This document shows, piece by piece, positions 2,527-29,677 of a stretch of 64,000 nt of DNA. The stretch is from positions 372,001 to 436,000 of the forward strand of contig NZ_JAJIRO010000002.1 of the NCBI RefSeq assembly GCF_025717535.1, given 5' to 3'. A program made the translations under genes and the position numbers. Source of the DNA: Paucibacter sp. Y2R2-4 (GTDB taxonomy: Bacteria; Pseudomonadota; Gammaproteobacteria; Burkholderiales; Burkholderiaceae_C). The notes beneath the pieces were generated by a model that ran no database searches, was not told the DNA's origin, and saw only the letters and a list, made by a program, of their open reading frames with translations. Position 1 is the first letter of the stretch. Every line of letters begins with the position of its first letter.

Positions 2527-5500
2527 TCACGGCCGCAGGACTTCAGCGGCAATTTGTGCCGAAGTGTAGCCAGCAATCAATGACAAAAGTTGTTCCTCAT
2601 CGTAGGGCTTGCCCAAGTAATGGTTGACCCCTAGCTGTTCGGCGTAATCGCGATGTTTTTGCGCAATACGCGAGGTGATCATGATCACCGGCAAGCCAGC
2701 CAAGCGTGCATCTGCCCGCATATTGCGAACCAAATCGAAGCCATCCATGCGCGGCATTTCGATGTCGGACAAAACCAGATCCGGCAATTCCTCGCCCGCC
2801 AACTGCTCCATGGCGTCCAAACCGTCTTTGGCCAATTGAACGCGATAGCCTTCGCGTTCCAACAAGCGCTGGGTCACGCGGCGCACCGTCAGCGAGTCGT
2901 CGACCACCAGCACCAGCGGCGCCAGTGTTTCTTCAGCGTCTTGCGCGGACTGCAAGGCTTGCGCCTGCGATTGAGCAGCCAGGCTGAGTTCACGCAATTG
3001 CGCTTGCGCAGCCGCACCGTACCAGCTGGCCAAGGCCACCGGGTTGTAGATCAAGGCCACTTCGCCCGAGGCCAGCAGGCTGATACCAGCAAGACCTGGC
3101 ACCCGGCTGAGCTGCGGCCCCAAATTCTTGACCACCACTTCCTGGTTGCCCAAGACTTCATCGACATGCAAGGCCATGCGCTGATGCGCCGTACGCACCA
3201 AGACGACCGAAGCATGCTTGCCATGCGCATGACCGCGGCCGGTCTGGCCCAAGAGGCCACCCAGCCAGTAGAAGGGCAAAGCCTCTCCGGCATAGTCCAG
3301 GCTGCCGCCGGCATAAGCGGCTTCCACCTGATCCAGCGGCACCCGTTGCACCGAATCCATCAGACTGGCCGGCACCGCCACCGATTGCTCGCCACAGCGC
3401 AGCAAGACCACCTGGGTGAGCGCCGTGGTCAAGGGCAGGCGCAAGGCGAACTGGGTACCCTGGCCGGCTGCGGAACTGGTTTCAATCGAGCCGCCCAAGG
3501 TGCTGACCTCGGCCCGCACCACGTCCATGCCGACCCCGCGCCCTGACAACTCGGTCACCTGAGCTGCCGTGGAAAAGCCGGGAGTAAAGATCAGTTGCAT
3601 CAGCGCTGCATCGGAGATCGGCGTGTGGGCCTCAATCTCGGGCTTGATCAAGCCAAGTTGCAGACCGCGCTCGCGAATACGCGCCAGATTCAGGCCAGCG
3701 CCGTCGTCGCTGAAGTTCAGCAAAACCTCATTGCCCTCTTGACGCACTTGCACGCGGATCGTTCCGACGGCATCTTTGCCTGCGGCCAGGCGCTGCTCGG
3801 GCGCCTCGATACCGTGGCTGACGCTGTTGCGCAGCAAGTGCTCAAAAGCGCCTGACATGCGTTCCAAGACGCTGCGGTCCAGCTCGGTTTGGCTGCCCAC
3901 CAGCTCCAACTTGGCTTGACGACCGGCATCGCGCGCCGCCTGGCGAACGACACGATGCAAACGCTCGGCCAGGCTTTCAAACTCCACCATGCGGGTGCGC
4001 AACAAGTCATCTTGCAGCTCGCGCGTCAGGCGCGACTGCGCGGCCAGCTCGTCTTCCCCTAACTGCACATTACGCTGCAAACTGCGCTGCACGGTGGCCA
4101 CGTCACCGACCGACTCGGCCAGCATGCGGGTCAATTCCTGGAAGCGGGTATAGCGGTCAAACTCCAAGGGATCGAAGTCGGCAGAACGCGCCTGATTCGC
4201 CTTGAACTGTTGCTCTTGCTGCGCGCCCATCTGGGCCTCGGCCTGCAACTCCAGCTCACGCAGCTGCGCCCGCAGGCGGTCCAAGTTATCGTCCAGATCA
4301 AGCAGCGAGCCCTTCATCTGAGCCAGCTCAGACTCCAGGCGCGAACGCCGGATGCTGACCTCGCCGGCCTGGGCGGCCATACGCTCCAACAAGCTGGCAC
4401 GCACCCGCACCAAGGCCTGCAGACCCGAGGGCATGGTGTCGGCGTTGCCGTCCAGAGGCGGCTCAGCGAAACGCGCCCAATCGATTTGCGGACCCGAGGC
4501 TTCGGCAGGCGCCGCAAATACCTGTGGCATCTCCAATGGCGCATCGGCTTCGATGGCGGCAGGAATCTCTGTGGCTTCACTTGCAAGCGTCGCCAGAACG
4601 GGTTCCTCATGGAGCGGCAAGGCCTCCGAGACGGGCTCATCCACGGCCAGAAGGTCTGGCGCTGGCGGCAGCTCCTGCACTTCAACCGCTTCCTGCACCT
4701 CAGGAACTTCCAGCAGCTCTGGCAACTCGTGCACAAGAGGCGCGGTGGTGGCAACTTCGGCCACAAGCTCGGCCACAAGCTCAGGCACAGGTTCGATGGC
4801 CACAGCCGGGGCCGAAACTGCAGCGCTCTGAGGCGGTGCGTTCAGCAATTGATCGAGGCTGGCTTCCAGCGCATCGGCGCCGACCTGCAAGGCCTGCAAG
4901 TCGCCCACGCTCGGCGTCCCTGCCATGGCGCGCTCGATGGCGGACTCCAAGGCATGCGCCTGTTCTCCCAAGCGCATCGCACCGGTCAAACGAGCGCCGC
5001 CCTTGAAGGTATGCAAGGCGCGCATGCAGGCGTCGCCATGGCGCTGATCGGACGCCGCGCCCAACCAGGCACGCAAAGCCCCATGCAGATCACGCAAGAG
5101 ATCGCGCGCTTCTTCTTCAAAGATCGGCAACAAGACCGGGTCGATCTCATCCGGCAGCCCGGGCTCCACCTCATCAGCATCGGCAGACAGCAGCACGGCG
5201 GAAGCGGGCTCCACCGCTGCGGCGTCACGCTCCCGCTCTGAGAAAGACCTGGGCTCATCAAAGCCACCCAGCCCATCATCCAAGGCGCCGAACTGGCTGC
5301 TGGGGTTGAGATCAGGCGTGTAGGCCTGCAAGCTGGCCAAGGTGGCGGGGTTGAGCGACTTCAAGAAGCCGGCTGCAAATTGATGCAGCAGATGGCGTAC
5401 CTCGTCGGCCGCCAGCACAAAGAGCTGGGCATCGGCTTCGCTGTAACGGCCGGCGCGCTGGGCACGACCCAAAGCATGTTCCAGCGCCCGGTTCAAGGTG

Positions 5501-8500
5501 GACAGGTCTTCGAAGCGCACCGCGGCGGCGCTGCCGGCCAAGGCGTGGGCCAGGGCCTCGCAGCTGGCGGGCACCGGCCGATTCAACTCAAGCGCCCACT
5601 CGGCCAGCTGTGTCGCCAAACGGCGCGACAACTCGTCGGCTTCGTTCAAGAAAATATTGAACAGCTCCAGCTTGACCGGCAAAGGGCCGATCATCTTGAA
5701 CTGCTCATCGATGGTCTCGTCGATCGTTTCGTCCAGCAGCTCTTCGTGCAGCGCAGGTTCCAGCGCTTGCAAGTCCACAGACTCCGGATGCAGCTGAGGC
5801 CGGTGCAACTCGATGATGGTGGCCGAAGGCAGCGCCGGTGTCTGCGGCTCCGCGGATAGCTCGGGCAGTTCGGGCAACTCGGTCAGCGCGGGCAAGTCGG
5901 CCGCCTCGGTCTCGGCCTCCGTCAAGGCAAGGCTCGTCGCCTCAGCCTCGGGCTCGGCGGCCTCGATGACTTCACCCAAATCCAAGCGCAGCTCGAACTC
6001 TGGCAACTCAAAGTCGGCCACCGGGGCCGACACGGGCTCGGCCGGCAGCAGCGGCAACTCCAGATCGAAGCCCAGGTCTTCCTCAGCCTGATCCAAGGGA
6101 ACAATCTCAGGAGGCGAAGCCTCCATCTCCAGGGGCTCGGCGTGTGCAGGCAGGTCCAAGTCCTCAACGAGTTCAGGCAGTTCTTCGACCGCCGGCGCAT
6201 CCATGGGCGCCTCAGCAGGGCCCATATCGTCCAGATGCAAGAGCTCCAGGGTCGGCGGCACAGCCTCGGCCGGTTCTGAAGAATCATGCAATTCGCCGGA
6301 GAACACGGTGGGCGGCAGATCAATCGTGGTGGCTGGCCATTCAATCGGCAATGCCGTACCCGCCAATCTGAGCGCATCGGCACTGCGGCGCAGCGGGTCT
6401 GGTACATGCACGCCCGGCTGACGTCCTGCAATTTGCTCGCACCAATCGCCCAGATAAATCAGAGCTTCGGCACTGAAAGCCAGCAGCGATGGATCGGCCT
6501 GCGGGGCCGCTTCACCCAGGCGCGCATTGAAGAGCTGCTCGCAAGCCCAGGCCCCCTCGCCAAAGGCATCAAAACCCACCATGCGGGCACTGCCTTTGAG
6601 CGTGTGGAAGGCGCGACGCAACACCGTCATCTGCTCTTTGTCTTGCGCATTCATGCGCAGAGCAGCGAGCGCGCGGCTGGCGGTCGCCAAGACTTCGCCG
6701 GCCTCCTCCAGGAAAATCTCCTGCATTTCCGGATCGGTCGCCGAAGCCATTTGCGGCACCAAGGAGGGTTTGGGCGCAGGCACTTCAAGCGGCGGCGGTA
6801 GCGGCGCAGCAACTGGCGCTGGGACTTGGTCGATTTCTGGAAGGGGCAAGGCTGCTTGCACTGAGGGCAGCTCCAGCACCGGCAGGTCCAACTCATCCAT
6901 GGGCTGAAGGAGCTGCGGCGGCTCGGCAAGTCCCGAAGGCATGGCCGGCGGCGCCGTGTGGGCAGCGACCACGGCCGGGTCCAGCGGTGGCAACTGAGTC
7001 GCATCACTGCGCCGGCCCATCACCGGATTGAGCCGGCCGCTGGCCTCATCAAACACAAACATGCGTTTGGCGAGCTGAGGCTGCACGCTCAGCATATCGA
7101 TCAAGAAGCCCAGGGCGCCCAGATTGTTGGCCAGCCGGTCGAACAATTCGCGTGCGCCACCACGGGCCACATCGACCTCGGTATTGGCCAGCTCGTCCAC
7201 CTCATCACGCATGCGCAGGCAGGCCAAGGCCGCCTGATCCAAGCCCAGCACGGTCAGCACGCCACGCATGGCCGAGAGCTGCGCCGGCACCGGAATCAAG
7301 CGCTCGCGCTGACCGGGGTCGCGGAAATACTCATCCGCCTGACGCTCCACCTCGGACAGATTGCTGCGCAGTTCCTGCACCACGCTGCCCAGGGTTTGTC
7401 GATCAGAGACCCGGCGGTACAGATCCTCCATCCAGGCTTCGAGCGGCTCGGGCGCTTCGCCATGTTGAACCGCTTCGATGCGTCCCGCCAGGCGCCGCAC
7501 CCGCTCGGCCTGTTCGGGCTGATCAAAGGCTGCGTCATCCAGGGCGGCATCCACATACAGCAAGCTGGTCGCCACTTCCATGGCCAGGGCCGGGGCCGGC
7601 GCGGCGCCGGAACGCAAGGTCGCCACTACCGCGCGCTGCAAGGCCTCGGCCAAGACTTCGCCCGAGGGGAAGAGCTTTTGCAAGGACTCGGCCAGCGCCA
7701 CGAACTGCTCATTCAAAGCGCCAATACGAGCGCTATCGCCTTCGGCCGCGCTGCTCCAAGACTCTTTGGCGGAGCTGACGCGGCGACGCGCCTGGCTCAC
7801 CCAAGCCGGGTCGATGCGACCCAGGGTCTCGTCTTCATAATCACCTGGCTCGACGGTACCGGCCTCTGCCAGACCGTAGGCAGCCAAGGCCGCTTGCAAT
7901 CGCAAGGCCGCCTGACCGGCCGCCGGCGCACGGCTTTGCGCGCAGAAAAACAGCAAGTCATGAGCCAAGCGATCGTTAACGCCGGCATCGCCTTGCGCCA
8001 CCGCGCGCAGCTGCGACAAGAGGCGAGAGCCCAAACGCTTGACGAAGCTGTCCACCGTCAACAGCCCCAGGGCCTGAGACTCAAACACAGCACTGGCCAA
8101 CTGCCAAAGCGTGCGGCTGTTCGGCCCATTCAAACCGGCCGCCAAAGAGGCACACAAATCACTCAGGCTGCGGGCATGCGCGGCGCTGGGCTCGCGCATG
8201 GCCTTCAGCAGCGTGGCCTCAAACGGCCCACGCACCACCGCGTGCGCCATGGCCTGAGCCTGCGCATCGGGCGGCAGCGTGCGCCAACTCCAGGGCTGTT
8301 CCCACAAATCAGCCGGGTGAATGCGCTCGGCGCCGTTGAGGGTTTGCAGTTCGCGGTAAGTCGGGAACAGGCTCAAGGGTGAAGCCTTGTTGCCGGCCAA
8401 CATGCGCGCAATCAGCGACAACAGGGCGAAGTCGGCCCGCTCAATCGTCTCAACCCGCTTCAGGTCGATCTCTTGCGGGTTTTGCGCCAAGTAAGCCACG

Positions 8501-22224: not shown

Positions 22225-22854
22225 ATGAGTTCCATTCAAGACAGCTGCACCACCCATCTGCTTTATCTGCACGGCTTCCGCTCTTCGCCGCGCTCCGCCA
22301 AGGCACTGCGCATGCGTGAATGGGTGGCGCAGCACCGCCGCGATCTGGTCTTTGCCTGCCCGCAACTGCCACCCTCCCCGGCCGAGGCCATGGACTTGTT
22401 GGAGACGCTCACTCGCGATTGGCCCCACGACACCAGCGCTTTGATGGGCAGCTCGCTGGGCGGCTTTTACGCCACCGTGCTGGCCGAGTGGCCGCGCTTC
22501 CAACAAAGCCGCGCGGTGTTACTGAACCCGGCCGTCGATCCGGCCCGCGACCTCGAGAAACACATCGGCGAGCAAAGCTGCTGGCAAGACCCGCAGGACC
22601 GGTTTTTCTTTAAGGCCGAGTTCATCGAACAACTGCGGCAGATTCGAGTCCCGAACAGCAGCGCCCCGCAGCGCCTGCTGGCCGTGGTGGCCAAGGGCGA
22701 TGAAGTGCTGGACTGGCGCGAAATGCACGCCCGCTACCAAGCCGGCCGCATCTCGCTGCTGGAAGGCAGCGACCATGGCTTGAGCGACTTTGAGGACTAT
22801 CTGGCCGATCTCTGCCAATTCCTGCGCTTGCCCGTCCCACACCCGCAGCCTTGA
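22225..22854 (+). CDS. YqiA/YcfP-family alpha/beta-hydrolase (esterase)
   Basis: A 209-residue soluble hydrolase. LLYLHGFRSSPRSAKA provides the oxyanion region, LMGSSLGGFYATVLAE carries the nucleophile Ser (G-S-S-L-G-G), LLAVVAKGDEVLDWREM the acid and GSDHGLSDF the His. The sequence pattern matches the UPF0227 esterases that cleave short acyl or thioester substrates in vitro; the cellular substrate is unknown. It is divergent from the metalloprotease gene and 153 bases upstream of the MaoC-Pta gene. Confidence 0.9.
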   Translation: MSSIQDSCTTHLLYLHGFRSSPRSAKALRMREWVAQHRRDLVFACPQLPPSPAEAMDLLETLTRDWPHDTSALMGSSLGGFYATVLAEWPRFQQSRAVLLNPAVDPARDLEKHIGEQSCWQDPQDRFFFKAEFIEQLRQIRVPNSSAPQRLLAVVAKGDEVLDWREMHARYQAGRISLLEGSDHGLSDFEDYLADLCQFLRLPVPHPQP

Positions 22855-23007
22855 TCTCGCTCAAAGCCAGCGCAGATGCGCGCGCGGCCAGCGCTTCTCG
22901 TCATGTGACTGACATGCATTGATCTCATGCTCCAAGGCATGGCGTCGCCCCCGGCTCTTGCTCGCGAGAGTCGGCCTGGCGCTTCATCCCACCTGGAGCC
23001 TGATCGC

Positions 23008-24408
23008 ATGAATGCACCCGATCTCTTGCGCAGCGACTGGATGCGCAACCGCACCTATGAGGAGTTAGCGCTGGGTCAAAGCGCACGCCTGGTACGCACC
23101 CTCCAGCCCACGGACATTCAAGCCTTTGCCTTGGTGTCGGGCGATGTGAACCCTGCCCACCTGGACGCCGAGTACGCCGAAGGCACGCGCTTTCACGGCG
23201 TGATTGCCCATGGCATGTGGGGCGCAGCGCTGATTTCCTCGGTGCTTGGCAATGAGTTCCCAGGGCCTGGCACCATCTATATGGAGCAAACCTTGCGCTT
23301 TGCGCGGCCGGTGCATGTGGGCGACACCTTGACCATTGTGCTGACGGTGATGGAGAAGCTCGACGACTCGGGCGTGGTCAAGCTCAGCTGCGAAGCCTGC
23401 AATCAAAAAGGCCAAACCGTCATCAGCGGCATGGCCACCGTGCTGGCGCCGCGCCACAAGATCGAGAGACCGCGCCCAGCGCTGCCGGTCATGCAGTTGT
23501 TCGACGCCGAAGCACGACTCGACGCATGGCTGAGCCAGATCAAATTGCCCGCGCCACTGCCCTGCGCCGTGGTCCACCCCTGCAATGCGGAAGCCCTGAG
23601 TGCAGCCTTGATGGCCCAGACGCGAGGCCTGATCGAGCCGCTGTTGCTCGGCCCCGAAACCCGCATTCGCGCCCTGGCCGACGAGCTAGGCCTGGACCTG
23701 CACGGCTGCCGCTTCATGCCCACGCCGCACAGCCATGCCGCCGCCGAACAGGCCTGCGCCATGGCGACTCAAGGCGAGCTGGCCCTGCTGATGCAAGGCA
23801 GCTTGTCCAGCGAAGAGCTGCTGCAAGCCTTGCAGGCCACACCCGCAAAGCCGAGTGGGCAGCGCTTGGCTCAGATCCAACGCTTTGACATCCCAACCTA
23901 TAGCAAGCCGCTTTTCATCGCCGATGTGGGCATCAATCTGCATCCCAACTTGGAAGCCAAGGCCGACATCCTGCGCCACGCCATCACCCTCGCCCATGCA
24001 ACCGGTTTGGCCCAGCCCAAGGTGGCGCTCTTGTCGGCAGTGGAAACCGTGTCCGAGCGCATCGCCTCGACCCTGGACGCCGCGGCCCTATGCAAGATGG
24101 CTCAGCGTGGGCAGATCGAAGGCGCGCTTTTGGACGGGCCCTTGGCCTTTGACAATGCCATCAACCCGGAAGCCGCCCGGCTGCACGGCATGAACTCAGC
24201 CGTGGCCGGTGATGCGGACATCTTGCTGGTGCCGGATTTGGAGTCCGGCAGTCTCTTGGGTAAATTGCTGGAGTACATGGCCGGCGCTGTCAGTTGCAGT
24301 GTGCTGTTAGGCGCGGCGCAGCCGGTGGCCATGAATGGGCGCAGCGACAGTGCTCAAGCACGGCTGGGCTCGCTCGCTTTGGCTGCGCTCGCGGCCAGCC
24401 ACGGCTAG
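23008..24408 (+). CDS. Bifunctional enoyl-CoA hydratase/phosphate acetyltransferase (MaoC-Pta fusion)
   Basis: A 466-residue fusion. Residues 15-145 are a MaoC-like R-hydratase hot-dog domain with the catalytic pair Asp46 and His51 in SGDVNPAHLDAEYAEG, then HGVIAHGMWGAALIS. Residues 165-466 are a phosphate acetyl/butyryltransferase domain (VALLSAVETVSERI, GALLDGPLAFDNAI, LVPDLESGSLLGKLLEY, GAVSCSVLLGAAQPV). The fusion is found in other proteobacteria and is usually tied to acyl-CoA/acyl-phosphate conversion. The start at 23008 is chosen for the domain boundary, with GGAG 12 bases before. Its stop shares CTAG with the opposing gene. Confidence 0.92.
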   Translation: MNAPDLLRSDWMRNRTYEELALGQSARLVRTLQPTDIQAFALVSGDVNPAHLDAEYAEGTRFHGVIAHGMWGAALISSVLGNEFPGPGTIYMEQTLRFARPVHVGDTLTIVLTVMEKLDDSGVVKLSCEACNQKGQTVISGMATVLAPRHKIERPRPALPVMQLFDAEARLDAWLSQIKLPAPLPCAVVHPCNAEALSAALMAQTRGLIEPLLLGPETRIRALADELGLDLHGCRFMPTPHSHAAAEQACAMATQGELALLMQGSLSSEELLQALQATPAKPSGQRLAQIQRFDIPTYSKPLFIADVGINLHPNLEAKADILRHAITLAHATGLAQPKVALLSAVETVSERIASTLDAAALCKMAQRGQIEGALLDGPLAFDNAINPEAARLHGMNSAVAGDADILLVPDLESGSLLGKLLEYMAGAVSCSVLLGAAQPVAMNGRSDSAQARLGSLALAALAASHG

Positions 24409-25346: not shown

Positions 25347-25847
25347 TCAGAGCACGAGGCTCTGGCTGTTCAGTTCGCGGTACCACTCGTCGGTCAAGAC
25401 CAGGAAGAAGGCTTGTTTGGTCTTGTGGTCGGCAAACTCCAGGCCGTAAGCGTGTTCGCGAGCGGTGACCATTTGGCCGGTGCTCAGCCCGGTCTTCTCA
25501 AAAGTCTTCTGCGGCAGCACCAAGAAAGCCAGTTCCTGCGCTTGTCCTTGCGACGCTGCAGCTTGCAACTGCAGGCGCACCATACCGGCCTGGTCGGGCA
25601 CGGCCGCCACATCGATGATGCGGTAGTCACCCGCCGAAGCGGTCTTTTCATTGCTGGACGAAGCGCTGGATTGCTGCGAAGACTTGGAGCCGCTGCTGGC
25701 GGCGCTGCTGGCACCCTCGGCAGCCGACGAAGCGGTGGAGCTGGCAGCACCCGCTGGATTGGCCGTTAGGGCCAACAAACTCAGGCACAGGCTGGCAGCA
25801 GCCGAATGAACGTTCATGGCGTTCAAATTGATACGAGACTTCATCAT
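25347..25847 (-). CDS. Exported Ser/Ala-rich protein of unknown function
   Basis: A 166-residue protein with a signal peptide (to about residue 34, ending NPAGAAS). A Ser/Ala-rich low-complexity stretch follows (about 35-70), then a compact domain (about 75-166) with YRIIDVAAVPDQAGMVRLQL, LAFLVLPQKTFEK and KQAFFLVLTDEWYREL. I do not recognise the family. The start is the first of two adjacent ATG codons at 25847, with AGAAGG seven bases before. The open frame extends far upstream, but that part overlaps the PPDK-like gene and is not supported. The DUF2145 gene follows without a gap. Confidence 0.7.
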   Translation of the reverse strand: MMKSRINLNAMNVHSAAASLCLSLLALTANPAGAASSTASSAAEGASSAASSGSKSSQQSSASSSNEKTASAGDYRIIDVAAVPDQAGMVRLQLQAAASQGQAQELAFLVLPQKTFEKTGLSTGQMVTAREHAYGLEFADHKTKQAFFLVLTDEWYRELNSQSLVL

Positions 25848-25914: not shown

Positions 25915-27570
25915 TCAAACCCGAAGAATCTCCGCTGTCTCGGTCTGTGCCGGCACCAGGTCTCGCCGCAACTGCGCCAACTCATCCAGCAGTCCGGGTG
26001 GGCAGCAGCGCTCGGTTTGCACCTGACCGGCATAGACACAGGCCTCGTTGCCATCCAAGCTGATCCAATCCCCTTCGCGCAGAAGGCGTTCGCCAAAACG
26101 AACCTCGTGCGCAGCTTCGTCCAATTGCATGCCCTCGCAGGCCAGCAGGCAGACCTTGCCCATCTGCCGTGCCACCACGGCGGCATGCGAGGTGCGGGCG
26201 CCGTTTTGGGTCAAGAGGCCCAAAGTGAGCGCCAAGGCGGCGCTGTCGGCGGTTTCAGCGTCACGCCGCAACAGCACAGCCGGCTGGCCGGCCGCCTGGG
26301 CCGCCAGCGCGCCGGCTTCGTCCAACACGATGCGTCCGGTCACCACCCCGCTGCTGGCCGCCTGCGCACGCGCCAGCGGCTGCAGCGCTTGGCCATCGGC
26401 GGCGAGTACGCGGCTGATCTGCAGGGCCTCGGCGTCCAGGCCCACACAGCGTTGCCGGGCGGTCGCTTGACCGATCACACCCTCGCGCCACAGGTCCAGC
26501 GCAATACGGGCCTGGGCTTGCGGGCTGCGTTTGCCGTCGCGCGTCTGCAGCAAATACAAACGTCCCTCCTGCACGGTGAACTCAAATTCCTGCATCTCGC
26601 CCATCTGGCGCTCCAGGCGCCCACAAGCTTGCTGCAGTTCCTCCCAGACCTGAGGCAAAACCTGCTGCAACTGTTCATGCCCCTGAGCGCTGCGACGCCC
26701 CGAGACCACGTCTTCGCCCTGTGCATTGAACAAGAAATCCACCCACAGGCCGGGCGCGCCGCTACGCGGGTCGCGGGTGAAGCCGACCCCTGCGCCCGAG
26801 CGCGCGCCGGCATTGCCGAACACCATGGCCTGCACGGTGACGGCCGTGCCAATGGCATCGGCAACACCATGAGCGGCACGGTAACTGCAAGCCTTGGCGG
26901 ACTGCCAAGACGCGAAAACAGCCGCAATCGCCTGTTGCAGCTGCGCCTGCGGCGACTGCGGAAAGGCGCTGCCGGCGGCTTCTTGGTAAAGCTGTAAAAA
27001 GCGCTGCGTCAGGCCGCGCAGCTCGGCAAAGTCGAGCTGGCGTTCATCGCGCCCCGCGCACAGGCGCTTCAACTCGTCCTCGAACAGTTCGGCGGGCAGG
27101 CCGCCCACCACCTCGGCAAAGCTGGCAATCAAACGGCGGTAGGCGTCCCAAGCCAGACGCGGATTGCCGGTCTGGCGAATCAGGCCCTGCACCGTGGCGT
27201 CGTTCAGGCCGATATTGAGCAGGGTTTCCATCATGCCGGGCATGGACACCGGCGCGCCGGATCGGACCGACAGCAGCAAAGGCCGGGCCGCATCGCCAAA
27301 ACGCAGCGCGCCACTGGCCGACTCCAAAGCTTGCAGCGCGCTCGCCCAGGTCTCGGGGCTCGCTGCCTCGCTGCGCTTCTCCGCATCCGCGCAGAACTGC
27401 GTGCCCAAGACAAAGGCCGGCGGCACCGGCAGGCCCATCTGCGCCATACGCAACAGATTGAAGGCCTTGAAGCCCAGGCGCTGCGGGCTGGCCTGGGCCA
27501 GCGCTGTTTGGCCGGCGCAGCCCAAGAGAAAGAGATCCGGCGGCAAGGCCGCTGTGCTGCTGGCCTTCAT
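25915..27570 (-). CDS. PPDK-like protein with ATP-grasp and phospho-His domains but no PEP/pyruvate barrel
   Basis: A 551-residue protein equal to the N-terminal two-thirds of pyruvate phosphate dikinase. The ATP-grasp part keeps SVRSGAPVSMPGMMETLLN, VFGNAGARSGAGVGFTRDP, FNAQGEDVVSGRR and EFEFTVQEGRLYLLQTRDGK. The swivelling domain keeps the phosphorylatable His462 in NGARTSHAAVVARQMGK. PPDK should then continue into an 8-stranded PEP/pyruvate barrel of about 350 residues; here the protein stops about 90 residues after the His. It can probably form phospho-His from ATP, but the acceptor is unknown. Its ATG overlaps the stop of the upstream gene (ATGA) and has GAGGTG inside that gene. Confidence 0.85.
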   Translation of the reverse strand: MKASSTAALPPDLFLLGCAGQTALAQASPQRLGFKAFNLLRMAQMGLPVPPAFVLGTQFCADAEKRSEAASPETWASALQALESASGALRFGDAARPLLLSVRSGAPVSMPGMMETLLNIGLNDATVQGLIRQTGNPRLAWDAYRRLIASFAEVVGGLPAELFEDELKRLCAGRDERQLDFAELRGLTQRFLQLYQEAAGSAFPQSPQAQLQQAIAAVFASWQSAKACSYRAAHGVADAIGTAVTVQAMVFGNAGARSGAGVGFTRDPRSGAPGLWVDFLFNAQGEDVVSGRRSAQGHEQLQQVLPQVWEELQQACGRLERQMGEMQEFEFTVQEGRLYLLQTRDGKRSPQAQARIALDLWREGVIGQATARQRCVGLDAEALQISRVLAADGQALQPLARAQAASSGVVTGRIVLDEAGALAAQAAGQPAVLLRRDAETADSAALALTLGLLTQNGARTSHAAVVARQMGKVCLLACEGMQLDEAAHEVRFGERLLREGDWISLDGNEACVYAGQVQTERCCPPGLLDELAQLRRDLVPAQTETAEILRV

Positions 27571-29522
27571 GCGCCCACCTCGGTCTTGCTGAACACCAGC
27601 TCGCGCATGGCATAGGCCGCATTGAGCAAGCGATCCGAAGCCTGCTCTAACTGATTGGCCAAGTCGTTGACCAACATCAGCGCGGCCGCGTTGGTCAGCT
27701 CAGCGGCCATGCAGCGCTTGGCCGCCCGCAGCAACTCGTCGCATTGGCGCTCGGCACGCAAGACCTGCCAGGTGGCGGCCACAAACTCATCATGCTCGGC
27801 AGCTTCGCTGGCCGCATTCAGGCCACGCGCCACGGCCACCGCCTTGACCTGCTCTTGCGTCGCATGCAGCACCGCTTGCGCCAGCTGCGACAGCAAATCG
27901 CGCAGCTCGCGGTTCCAGCCTTGGTGATGATGATCGGCAATCAAGCTCAGCAAGAAGGCGCATTCCTCCAGCGCGTCGGCGGCATCGTCCGCCGGTTGCA
28001 AAAGGTTCGCAAACGCGGCCCAGCGCGGCTGGCGACGCGCTCGCTCGCGGGCCTGCATGACCAAATGGTCAGCCTGGCGCTCCCAGGTCTTGGCGCGCTG
28101 AGCCAGCTTGGTGGCGGCGTCTTTGTCTTGCTCCCAGCCATGCGCCAGGGCCTGGCTGATGCCCTCGGCCAAGGTCTGGCAATAGGCGGCGTGCTCGGCC
28201 AAGAGGTCAAACTCGGGCGCACGCTGTTGCAACTGCCGCGCCAGCAGCAAGCGGGCTTCATCGGCCACCAGAGCGCTGGGCTGGTTTTGCAGCAAGGCGT
28301 GTGAAGCCAGGCGCAGCACCTCGATCAAAAAGACCTGCGCACCGCTCTCGCCCAAGACCTCGTCCAGGCGATCGCCAATGCGAAAGGCATCAGCCCCCAG
28401 GGCCTGCATGGCTTCGAACAACATGCGCTCGCCGCCCGCTTTCAGCCAAGCCATATGGCCCACTTCCAGCCGGGCCGCCTCGGCCAGCACCGCAATCGCC
28501 TCCCGCTTGCCAACAAAGTTCAGCAGACGCTTGCGGGCTCGGTTCCAGTCGATCAAGAAGACGATGCGCGAAGCCACGCCCTCCAACATCCACAAGAGCT
28601 GGGCTTCGTCCTCGGCCGCAAAGCGAGCGGTGCCCAACTGATAGGCCTCGCCTTGATTCAGCCCCGCCGAGACGCGCGCCTCCGGCACGGACCATTGCCC
28701 GCCATAAGCGGCCAGTTGCGCCTGGAAAAACTCGAAACGGGTTTTGTGCAGATCTGAATAGGTCAGGCTGATGCTCAAACCTTGCACCTGCAGCACCAGC
28801 ACATGCGCATCATTGGTGCCGATATCGTTTTGGATCAGCAAGCGCTCGCCGTCGCGGGTGGCGGCCGTGTCCAAACCGGGGTGGTCAAACTTCAAAGGCG
28901 CGGTGCGCTGCAGGCCGCGCATGAAAGCGGCCACACGGGGCCGATCGCCCTCCTCCAAGGCCCAGACATGGGCGCCCTCAATCAGCTCGCTGGCCAAGCT
29001 GGCGGCCAGCTGGTTGAGCTGTTTGTGCAGGTCCATCACCAAGAGGTGCAAGCTGTCGTCCGCAGCCTCGCCATGTTTGGCACGGTGGCCATGGCTCAGG
29101 CTGCGCAGCAAGGCAGGGCTGAGCAGTTCGTCTTGCACGGCCTCCAGGCTCGCGGTCCAGCGCGCCACTCGCTCGCGCGTGGCGCGGTCGATTTCGATTT
29201 GCAACAGGGGCCGAGCCATCAAGGCCAGGTCTTCGGCCAGTTGGGCGGCCAGGCGCGGCAGCTCGGGCAAGAGCACGTCTTCGCCCTCGCGGCTGGCCTG
29301 GGCCGGCATCTCGCGCAGCCAGGCGGCGTCCAGGCTGGCTGCGGCCATCTCGTGGCGCAAATCCGGCAAAGCCTCTTTAGGCGCCATGGCGTGGTTGGCG
29401 GCGGCTTGCAAGACCGTCAGGCACAGTTTCAATCGATCATTGGCCAGCAAGGCGGTTTTGACCCAGGCGGGCAAGAGCAGGCTGTGCTGACCCAGGGAAG
29501 CGACGGCGTCGGACTTTTGCAT
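27567..29522 (-). CDS. Large protein with PhoU/DUF47-like C-terminus, partner of the PPDK-like protein
   Basis: A 651-residue, mostly helical, soluble protein with no signal peptide. The last 220 residues (about 430-651) read like PhoU/DUF47 helical bundles, with QADHLVMQARERARR, DAADALEECAFLLSLIADH and ECDELL-type and NQLEQASDRLLNAAYAM segments. The first 200 residues are helical without a recognised match. A central part (about 225-340) looks beta-rich (ERLLIQNDIGTNDAHVLVLQ, LSISLTYSDLH, QLLWMLEGVASRIVFLIDW) and is unknown to me. It is translationally coupled to the PPDK-like gene. No strong ribosome binding site precedes the ATG. DUF47 proteins commonly partner phosphate transporters; none is nearby. 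Confidence 0.65.
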   Translation of the reverse strand: MQKSDAVASLGQHSLLLPAWVKTALLANDRLKLCLTVLQAAANHAMAPKEALPDLRHEMAAASLDAAWLREMPAQASREGEDVLLPELPRLAAQLAEDLALMARPLLQIEIDRATRERVARWTASLEAVQDELLSPALLRSLSHGHRAKHGEAADDSLHLLVMDLHKQLNQLAASLASELIEGAHVWALEEGDRPRVAAFMRGLQRTAPLKFDHPGLDTAATRDGERLLIQNDIGTNDAHVLVLQVQGLSISLTYSDLHKTRFEFFQAQLAAYGGQWSVPEARVSAGLNQGEAYQLGTARFAAEDEAQLLWMLEGVASRIVFLIDWNRARKRLLNFVGKREAIAVLAEAARLEVGHMAWLKAGGERMLFEAMQALGADAFRIGDRLDEVLGESGAQVFLIEVLRLASHALLQNQPSALVADEARLLLARQLQQRAPEFDLLAEHAAYCQTLAEGISQALAHGWEQDKDAATKLAQRAKTWERQADHLVMQARERARRQPRWAAFANLLQPADDAADALEECAFLLSLIADHHHQGWNRELRDLLSQLAQAVLHATQEQVKAVAVARGLNAASEAAEHDEFVAATWQVLRAERQCDELLRAAKRCMAAELTNAAALMLVNDLANQLEQASDRLLNAAYAMRELVFSKTEVGA

Positions 29523-29677
29523 GATGGTGGCCGGAACAAAACGGCTCGCAATAAAGGGCCTGGCCAGTATGTTCAGTGCCGCGTGACAAGGGCGTTACAG
29601 CCGCTTGAATACGGCCTTAGCAGACCCTCTGCATGCAAAGCCCTTGATCTGGCGCAAATCGCAAAGCGCCGGGCAAG

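What the first reader, a model, noticed from the sequence alone, without database searches (positions are those of the whole stretch)
25915..29522. Coupled pair: PPDK-like phosphotransferase without a substrate barrel, plus a large PhoU/DUF47-like partner
The 551-residue protein keeps the ATP-grasp and phospho-His motifs of pyruvate phosphate dikinase almost unchanged (SVRSGAPVSMPGMM, FNAQGEDVVSGRR, TSHAAVVARQMGK) but ends where the PEP/pyruvate barrel should start. PPDK, PEP synthase and rifampicin phosphotransferase all carry a third substrate module, so here the phosphoryl acceptor must lie elsewhere. The most obvious candidate is the ATGA-coupled 651-residue partner, whose C-terminus looks PhoU/DUF47-like and whose first two-thirds I cannot place. 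No canonical PPDK barrel is encoded nearby. This could be an unrecognised phosphotransfer or phosphate-sensing system.
Basis: partly seen in the sequence, partly recalled or inferred. Interest (0 to 1): 0.75.

Follow-up and report, generated by a model that had tools for sequence, protein, structure and literature searches.

The report
Barrel-less PPDK kinase with PhoU-type partner
Two overlapping genes encode a pyruvate-phosphate-dikinase-like enzyme without its pyruvate domain and a large partner ending in a phosphate-regulator (PhoU) domain; in the genomes sampled they occur together, often near acetyl-phosphate genes and behind a low-oxygen-type promoter box, so they look like an undescribed phosphate-transfer module.

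Summary
The 551-aa protein holds PPDK's ATP-grasp and phospho-His domains and no PEP barrel. The 651-aa partner ends in a PhoU_div domain.

The pair is a unit. In 200 genomes of the window's family the partner occurs in 18 and this PPDK clade in the same 18. In 61 of 62 loci fetched with the partner, the PPDK gene follows directly; the 62nd contig ends there. These PPDKs form one clade, apart from canonical PPDKs and from a mycobacterial VadK-type barrel-less PPDK.

New here:
(i) The partner's most conserved part is its core, not the PhoU end.
(ii) The core's DSxH…LH helix resembles one in the small partner of VadK-type PPDKs, a domain fused to barrel-less PPDK in 6 of 8 Burkholderiales hits. 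Homology is suggestive only.
(iii) 41 of 62 loci (20 of them Bradyrhizobiaceae) hold acetate kinase, phosphotransacetylase, phosphoketolase or PFOR genes nearby.
(iv) FNR-like boxes (9 of 10 or better) lie upstream in 13 of 58 cases (0.5 expected); the window's own box is weak.

Best reading: a two-protein phosphotransferase linked to oxygen limitation, with His462 charged from ATP and the partner supplying or being the acceptor. The acceptor is unknown. Barrel-less PPDK kinases are in print (VadK, 2026); this pair is a new variant.

The parts
25915..27570 (-). Barrel-less PPDK-like kinase, 551 aa
   Evidence: ORF; PPDK_N + PEP-utilizers, no PF02896; model pLDDT 90.7, pTM 0.87
26386..27480 (-). 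ATP-grasp (PPDK_N) part, about residues 31-395; K35, R103, E330, Q342, R344 invariant
   Evidence: Pfam, alignment to solved PPDKs, 31 of 31 aligned members
26011..26385 (-). Swivel (phospho-His) domain, about residues 396-520
   Evidence: Pfam PEP-utilizers 429-509; alignment to solved PPDKs
26185..26187 (-). Codon of His462, expected phospho-histidine
   Evidence: TSHAAVVAR motif aligned to PPDK; T460, S461, H462 in 31 of 31; phosphorylation not tested
27567..27570 (-). ATGA overlap of the two genes
   Evidence: a gap of -4 in 30 of the 61 loci with both genes
27567..29522 (-). Partner protein, 651 aa
   Evidence: ORF; model pLDDT 87.6, pTM 0.61
28953..29522 (-). Partner residues 1-190, helical part with N28-x10-Q39
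   Evidence: model; invariant in 38 of 38 aligned partners
29013..29057 (-). DSLHLLVMDLHKQLN helix, residues 156-170, resembling the small partner of VadK-type PPDKs
28233..28952 (-). Partner core, residues 191-430, with KFxHPGLxT, QNDIGTxDAHV, YxDxH, DWNxARK
   Evidence: invariant columns
27570..28232 (-). PhoU_div domain, residues 431-651, ExxxD pairs 481/485, 591/595, 626/630
29644..29657 (.). FNR/Anr-like box (8 of 10), 122-135 nt upstream of the partner
   Evidence: weak in the window by itself, better in relatives
22927..24408 (+). MaoC-phosphotransacetylase fusion, recurrent neighbour
   Evidence: Pfam; homologue in 20 of 62 loci
22851..22864 (.). FNR-like box (9 of 10) before the MaoC-PTA gene

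Best explanation
The pair is a two-protein phosphotransferase derived from PPDK and linked to oxygen limitation. Step 1 (inferred from conserved residues and from VadK; not shown for this protein): the 551-aa protein binds ATP in its ATP-grasp part and charges His462 of its swivel domain; the PPDK-type site predicts ATP + Pi giving AMP + PPi and phospho-His. Step 2 (inferred): with no PEP barrel to dock on, the swivel docks on the N-terminal and core part of the 651-aa partner, whose DSxH...LH helix resembles the partner of other barrel-less PPDKs. Step 3 (inferred): the phosphoryl group passes to an acceptor held by, or part of, the invariant core (KFxHPGLxT, QNDIGTxDAHV, YxDxH, DWNxARK). Step 4 (inferred): the PhoU-like end, with its ExxxD metal-type motifs intact, adjusts the reaction to phosphate or metal state. 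Shown by computation: constant pairing, missing barrel, domain make-up, conserved residues, acetyl-phosphate neighbourhood, upstream boxes. The acceptor is not known.
For: Pairing: 61 of 62 loci; 18 genomes of 200 and the same 18; 20 of 20 regions read. ATP-grasp and His residues invariant in 31 of 31 aligned PPDKs. No barrel in the protein or free-standing in the genome. The partner core is more conserved than its PhoU end: 78 of 430 against 12 of 221 invariant columns. PhoU fold and ExxxD motifs. DSxH helix shared with the small partners of VadK-type PPDKs, a domain fused to barrel-less PPDK in 6 of 8 Burkholderiales hits. Acetyl-phosphate genes near 41 of 62 loci. FNR-like boxes in 13 of 58 upstream regions. 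VadK autophosphorylates without a barrel (PMC13400623, section 8).
Against: No experiment on this pair. The link between partner and small partner is weak by whole-profile methods (hhalign P 0.02-0.05 with probability 1-2%; single sequences give nothing), and with the full small-family model an unrelated ORF scores best, E 0.0072. The Azospirillum and Skermanella short PPDKs and one Rhodococcus copy show no such neighbour. In most of the 20 later regions (12 of 20) no AckA, PTA or XFP lies near. The window's own box is only 8 of 10, a level reached 38 times in the window.
Confidence: 0.45

Rival explanations
1. A regulatory kinase of the VadK kind: its phosphorylation state controls binding to other enzymes (acetate kinase, phosphotransacetylase, pyruvate enzymes), and the partner is a phosphate or metal sensor or scaffold rather than a catalytic acceptor.
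For: VadK is proposed to act by binding methylcitrate-cycle enzymes (PMC13400623, sections 16 and 17 and passages). PhoU domain in the partner. Recurrent metabolic neighbours.
Against: The enzyme-like invariant core of the partner is more than a scaffold needs; the pair is in another PPDK clade than the mycobacterial enzyme.
Confidence: 0.27
2. A PPDK in two pieces: the partner core is a replacement pyruvate/PEP site and the pair interconverts pyruvate and PEP.
For: The first half-reaction site is intact; PFOR and acetate genes nearby fit pyruvate metabolism; the window genome has PEP synthase but no canonical PPDK.
Against: G032, G200 and G335 carry the pair and a second PPDK match in an 887-985-aa frame. 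No sequence match of the partner to a PEP-binding domain.
Confidence: 0.1
3. The pair runs towards ATP: an acyl phosphate such as acetyl phosphate charges the histidine, and AMP + PPi become ATP + Pi.
For: Phosphoketolase-AckA-partner-PPDK gene order in Bradyrhizobium, MaoC-PTA or AckA elsewhere; PPDK chemistry is reversible (established knowledge); CYTH-CHAD genes near 5 of 62 loci.
Against: Context only; no acyl-phosphate site was identified.
Confidence: 0.08

Closest known systems
VadK (Rv1127c) with operon partner Rv1126c, mycobacteria (PMC13400623)
   Same: PPDK ATP-grasp and phospho-His domains without PEP barrel; an operon partner; the partner type shares an N-x10-Q and [DES]SxHx6H signature with the window partner (seen in the M. 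avium homologue, not in Rv1126c itself).
   Different: Separate clade; NF004531 score under the cut-off; the small partner is about 200 aa and has no PhoU match; the window partner is 651 aa with PhoU.
Pyruvate, phosphate dikinase (PPDK)
   Same: ATP-grasp and swivel, active-site residues.
   Different: No PEP/pyruvate barrel; TIGR01828 485.7 bits against a cut-off of 843.45.
HpeHI, CreHI, PpsAB two-component dikinases (PMC12167813)
   Same: Dikinase chemistry divided over two proteins, with a non-barrel acceptor module.
   Different: There the swivel sits on the acceptor subunit and the donor subunit is ATP-grasp alone; here ATP-grasp and swivel share one chain. Their ATP-grasp loop resembles PEP synthase rather than PPDK (paper, section 8).
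PhoU / DUF47 (PhoU_div) regulators
   Different: Fused behind a 430-residue conserved part; the coupled gene is a PPDK-like kinase.

Membership tests
Pyruvate, phosphate dikinase | ATP-grasp and phospho-His domains with active-site residues | tested here: met
Pyruvate, phosphate dikinase | C-terminal PEP/pyruvate barrel (PF02896) | tested here: not met
Pyruvate, phosphate dikinase | TIGR01828 equivalog cut-off | tested here: not met
   485.7 against 843.45 bits
VadK (NF004531, PRK05878) | NF004531 equivalog cut-off | tested here: not met
   408.3 against 456 bits; the M. avium homologue scores 867.6
VadK (NF004531, PRK05878) | Same clade as mycobacterial VadK-type PPDK | tested here: not met
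   The M. avium plasmid protein stood in for VadK; 36 pair proteins form a separate clade, 100/100
VadK (NF004531, PRK05878) | Autophosphorylation on the swivel histidine | not testable with these tools
   Shown for VadK in PMC13400623 section 8
VadK-type small partner (about 200 aa) | N-x10-Q and [DES]SxHx6H signature | tested here: met
VadK-type small partner (about 200 aa) | Homology over the domain by profile comparison | tested here: inconclusive
   hhalign P 0.03, 0.05, 0.02; hmmsearch E 0.09 at best for a partner
PhoU_div / DUF47 | PF01865 gathering score | tested here: met
   28.3 against 24.4 bits
PhoU_div / DUF47 | PhoU fold and ExxxD motifs | tested here: met
Two-component small-molecule dikinase (HpeHI type) | Swivel domain on the acceptor subunit, apart from the ATP-grasp | tested here: not met
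   Both are on the 551-aa chain; the partner has no PEP-utilizers hit

The most novel reading that the evidence does not exclude
Barrel-less PPDKs are a broad class of modular dikinases in which the PEP barrel is replaced, in trans or by fusion, by a partner domain with an N-x10-Q ... [DES]SxHx6H signature that receives the phosphoryl group. VadK with its partner, the fused Burkholderiales forms and the window pair would be members. The window lineage joins this domain to a PhoU module under FNR-type control, making an oxygen- and phosphate-responsive phosphotransfer system that acts on acetyl-phosphate metabolism.
Probability: 0.3. Interest if true: 0.85.

Novelty: new variant of a known kind. 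Interest (0 to 1): 0.62.

Why it matters
Barrel-less PPDKs are known to me from one experimental case, in a pathogen (VadK). This pair gives a second, separate and constantly paired lineage in environmental bacteria, where the question 'what receives the phosphate?' can be tested with two purified proteins. It also points to a partner signature that would apply to VadK-type enzymes, and it ties a PhoU-type domain to a phospho-His enzyme, to acetyl-phosphate genes and to a low-oxygen-type promoter box.

Tried and rejected
Free-standing barrel gene as a hidden third subunit: rejected for the own genome.

Chance neighbourhood: rejected by 18 and the same 18 of 200 genomes.

Pair as the organism's ordinary PPDK: unlikely, since G032, G200 and G335 also hold a PPDK match in an 887-985-aa frame.

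One partner family for all short PPDKs: rejected; the 203-aa protein before the Azospirillum PPDK is an NAD-binding protein. Eight small partners (M. avium, R. oxybenzonivorans, Paraburkholderia, Streptomyces, Novosphingobium, Methylibium, R. pyridinivorans, Diaphorobacter) align with one another.

Solved-structure search: the single partner sequence found nothing at E up to 1; the profile found 3l39, PhoU-like, at 0.00087, then designed and other proteins at 0.046 or worse.

A relaxed motif gave 119 hits in 203 loci, all in partners of either type. That pattern was drawn from both families, so I do not count it as a test; one search uses the small family alone, although its 15 columns were picked after the likeness had been seen.

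Description in print: searches listed no paper on this pair (titles and abstract starts seen, three papers opened in passages besides the two read in part). Subscription papers are mostly not held. PMC10551460 was a false lead (DUF475). PMC10888616 (passages) reports pta and ackA paralogues under PhaR control in Bradyrhizobium diazoefficiens, not the pair. PMC10734416 is not held.

Viral contigs: one contig (L149) carries the partner and the start of the PPDK, cut by the contig end; I read it as bacterial DNA (inference).
Full report

A CONSTANT PAIR. A scan of genome contigs with the partner gave 62 loci, in records labelled beta-, alpha- or gammaproteobacterial plus one acidobacterium. The short PPDK follows directly in 61 of 62; in the 62nd the contig ends 177 nt after the partner match. 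With start codons chosen by script, the gap is -4 in 30 of these 61 and lies between -17 and 137 in all. Since these loci were found through the partner, the reverse was tested on samples not chosen for it. In 200 genomes of the window's family the partner occurs in 18. PPDK matches of 755-879 bits occur in 18, the same ones; the next PPDK match scores 555 bits. Twenty regions were read (17 of those 18 genomes plus G032, G200, G335); all 20 have both genes side by side on one strand; some repeat loci of the first 62. In 398 genomes of the phylum four have the full-length partner and three match only its DUF47 end; the four best PPDK matches lie in the same four genomes (whose list of weaker matches is cut). 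The pair is sporadic: 13 of 141 genera in the family sample. It also lies on plasmids of Aquabacterium olei and Methylocella tundrae.

LINEAGE. In a tree of 66 PPDK N-terminal parts the 36 pair proteins form one clade (100/100). On the other side lie 15 PPDKs of barrel-bearing length (PF02896 tested only for L110), three 835-848-aa forms (L078 and L114 tested and without PF02896; L116 not tested), and 12 other short PPDKs, the M. avium one among them (first tree). Short PPDKs need at least three changes on starred branches outside the pair clade, so the barrel was lost or exchanged more than once. Partner and PPDK identities of 31 loci correlate at 0.977 over 465 pairs; common descent alone would give much of this.

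ANATOMY OF THE PARTNER. In 38 aligned partners (of 63 at hand) 78 of 430 columns of residues 1-430 are invariant, and 12 of 221 of the PhoU end. Invariant columns cluster at 151-190 (16 of 40), 191-270 (30 of 80) and 321-360 (13 of 40). They include N28, Q39, D156, S157, H159, D164, H166, K167, N170, K211, H214, N232, D233, D238, H240, Y255, D257, H259, D325, W326, N327, K331 and H356. This looks like a ligand or catalytic site (inference). The PhoU end keeps three ExxxD pairs in 38 of 38. On the PPDK side K35, R103, R138, R145, E330, Q342, R344, T460, S461 and H462 are invariant in 31 of 31 (of 62 at hand); position 328 is D in 30 and E in the window.

A SHARED PARTNER SIGNATURE. VadK (Rv1127c) is a barrel-less PPDK that autophosphorylates on His422, and its operon partner Rv1126c improves its solubility (PMC13400623; abstract, sections 8, 16, 17 and passages seen). 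On an M. avium plasmid the homologous PPDK is followed, with overlap, by a 201-aa protein. Relatives of that protein lie directly beside a PPDK-like gene in R. oxybenzonivorans, R. pyridinivorans, Streptomyces atratus, Paraburkholderia, Novosphingobium and Diaphorobacter; the Methylibium copy lies about 22 kb from that plasmid's PPDK-like gene. Two further short PPDKs of the family sample, in G890 and G781, have it adjacent, and so does an 855-aa-frame PPDK in G807. In 399 Burkholderiales genomes the small family occurs in 8. In 6 of the 8 it is the C-terminal part of a reading frame that begins as PPDK; for the two scanned, L126 and L130, Pfam gives PPDK_N + PEP-utilizers and no PF02896. Of the other two, L124 has the PPDK next door and L125/L199 has none in the 11 kb read. 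In R. opacus the domain is fused to a 793-aa PEP-utilizing enzyme about 7 kb from a short PPDK. The 17 small members aligned keep N-x10-Q and [DES]S-x-H-x6-H. The window partner has N28-x10-Q39 and D156-S157-x-H159-x6-H166, invariant in 38 of 38.

TEST OF THAT LIKENESS. A 15-column profile made from the 17 small members alone was scanned over 1,532,724 six-frame windows of the 62 loci. The 62 top windows (13.6-15.6) are the partner helix of the 62 loci; the 63rd (13.6) is another stretch of the L013 partner; the best window elsewhere scores 12.7. Counting the partners as one family of about 640 windows, the chance is of the order of 4 in 10,000; the columns were picked after the likeness had been seen. 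Against it: hhalign P is 0.03, 0.05 and 0.02 with probabilities of 1-2% and nothing with single sequences. With the C-terminal small-family model the best partner has E 0.09, although 24 of the 27 rows printed are partner frames; with the whole model an unrelated ORF is first, E 0.0072. I treat homology as suggestive. The Azospirillum and Skermanella short PPDKs and one Rhodococcus copy (L113) have no such neighbour within the 9-12 kb fetched.

CONTEXT. In the 62 loci (up to 6 kb each side) acetate kinase occurs in 27, MaoC-PTA in 20, phosphoketolase in 20, PhaC in 12, FabI in 11, CYTH-CHAD in 5 and PFOR in 1; 41 of 62 have AckA, PTA, XFP or PFOR, 20 of these being the Bradyrhizobiaceae loci (Pfam of examples). 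In the 20 later regions 8 have AckA, PTA or XFP and 12 do not. No random-region control was run for this. The window has MaoC-PTA about 1.5 kb beyond the PPDK gene.

UPSTREAM BOX. In 300 nt upstream of the partner in 58 non-Bradyrhizobium cases, a match of at least 9 of 10 to TTGAT-N4-ATCAA occurs in 13, four of them perfect. Expected: 0.53 from 2,386 tiled regions of the same loci, 0.47 from shuffles (largest 3 in 100). The 13 lie at -100 to -128 (eight), -231 (one) and, in four alphaproteobacterial records, -63 to -78. Caveats: cases are related and not independent, one is a known repeat without a hit, tiles are mostly coding, and three close Paucibacter/Roseateles relatives give three of the hits. 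The window's own box (29644-29657) is only 8 of 10, a level reached 38 times in the window against 11.6 in shuffles; MaoC-PTA has a 9-of-10 box at 22851-22864. The consensus as that of FNR/Anr/FixK is recalled; the genome holds 18 HTH_Crp_2 matches, 11 over the cut-off.

MECHANISM. See Best explanation. Shown: gene pair, domains, conserved residues, co-occurrence, context. Inferred: charging of His462 by ATP + Pi, docking on the partner, transfer to an acceptor in the core, tuning by the PhoU end, low-oxygen control. The genome also has a Kinase-PPPase (PF03618) gene beside its PEP-synthase-like gene, and T460 next to His462 is invariant, so the regulatory phosphorylation known for PPDK is possible here; not tested.

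COMPARISON. The pair is not a PPDK (barrel absent, cut-off not met), not VadK itself (cut-off not met, other clade), and not an HpeHI-type dikinase (swivel on the ATP-grasp chain; PMC12167813, abstract and sections 8-10 seen). It works like them as far as sequence can show. The searches listed no paper on this pair.

Noticed in passing
L078:4905-7436, L114:3938-6445, L116 (about 3920-6466): PPDK-like proteins of 835-848 aa whose last 320-335 residues are not the PEP barrel by Pfam (L078 and L114 tested, L116 not); L114 and L116 have the small DSxH partner directly before them.
   Followed up: partly
L120:3878-6259 (minus strand): A 793-aa R. opacus PEP-utilizing enzyme carries the small DSxH domain as its C-terminus, in a plasmid region with phosphotransferase, P450 and aldehyde dehydrogenase genes.
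   Followed up: partly
L077:4312-6647 and L115:2436-5590: Short PPDKs of Azospirillum and Skermanella form their own branch and lie near pyruvate kinase (in Skermanella also glyoxylate-pathway genes), with no DSxH neighbour.
   Followed up: partly
window 28713-28757 (partner residues 256-270): A second stretch of the partner (SDLHxxRFEFFQ) also scores on the small-partner helix profile in L013, L007 and L012; perhaps an internal repeat, perhaps chance.
   Followed up: no
L149:5001-7259: An IMG/VR contig carries the partner and the start of the PPDK; probably bacterial DNA filed as viral.
   Followed up: partly
L017, L018, L022, L031, L038: A CYTH(-CHAD) gene (triphosphate/polyphosphate type; Pfam checked for L018) lies near the pair in 5 of 62 loci.
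   Followed up: partly
window 25350-25811 (minus strand): A 154-aa protein directly after the PPDK gene has no Pfam match; the next gene is DUF2145.
   Followed up: no
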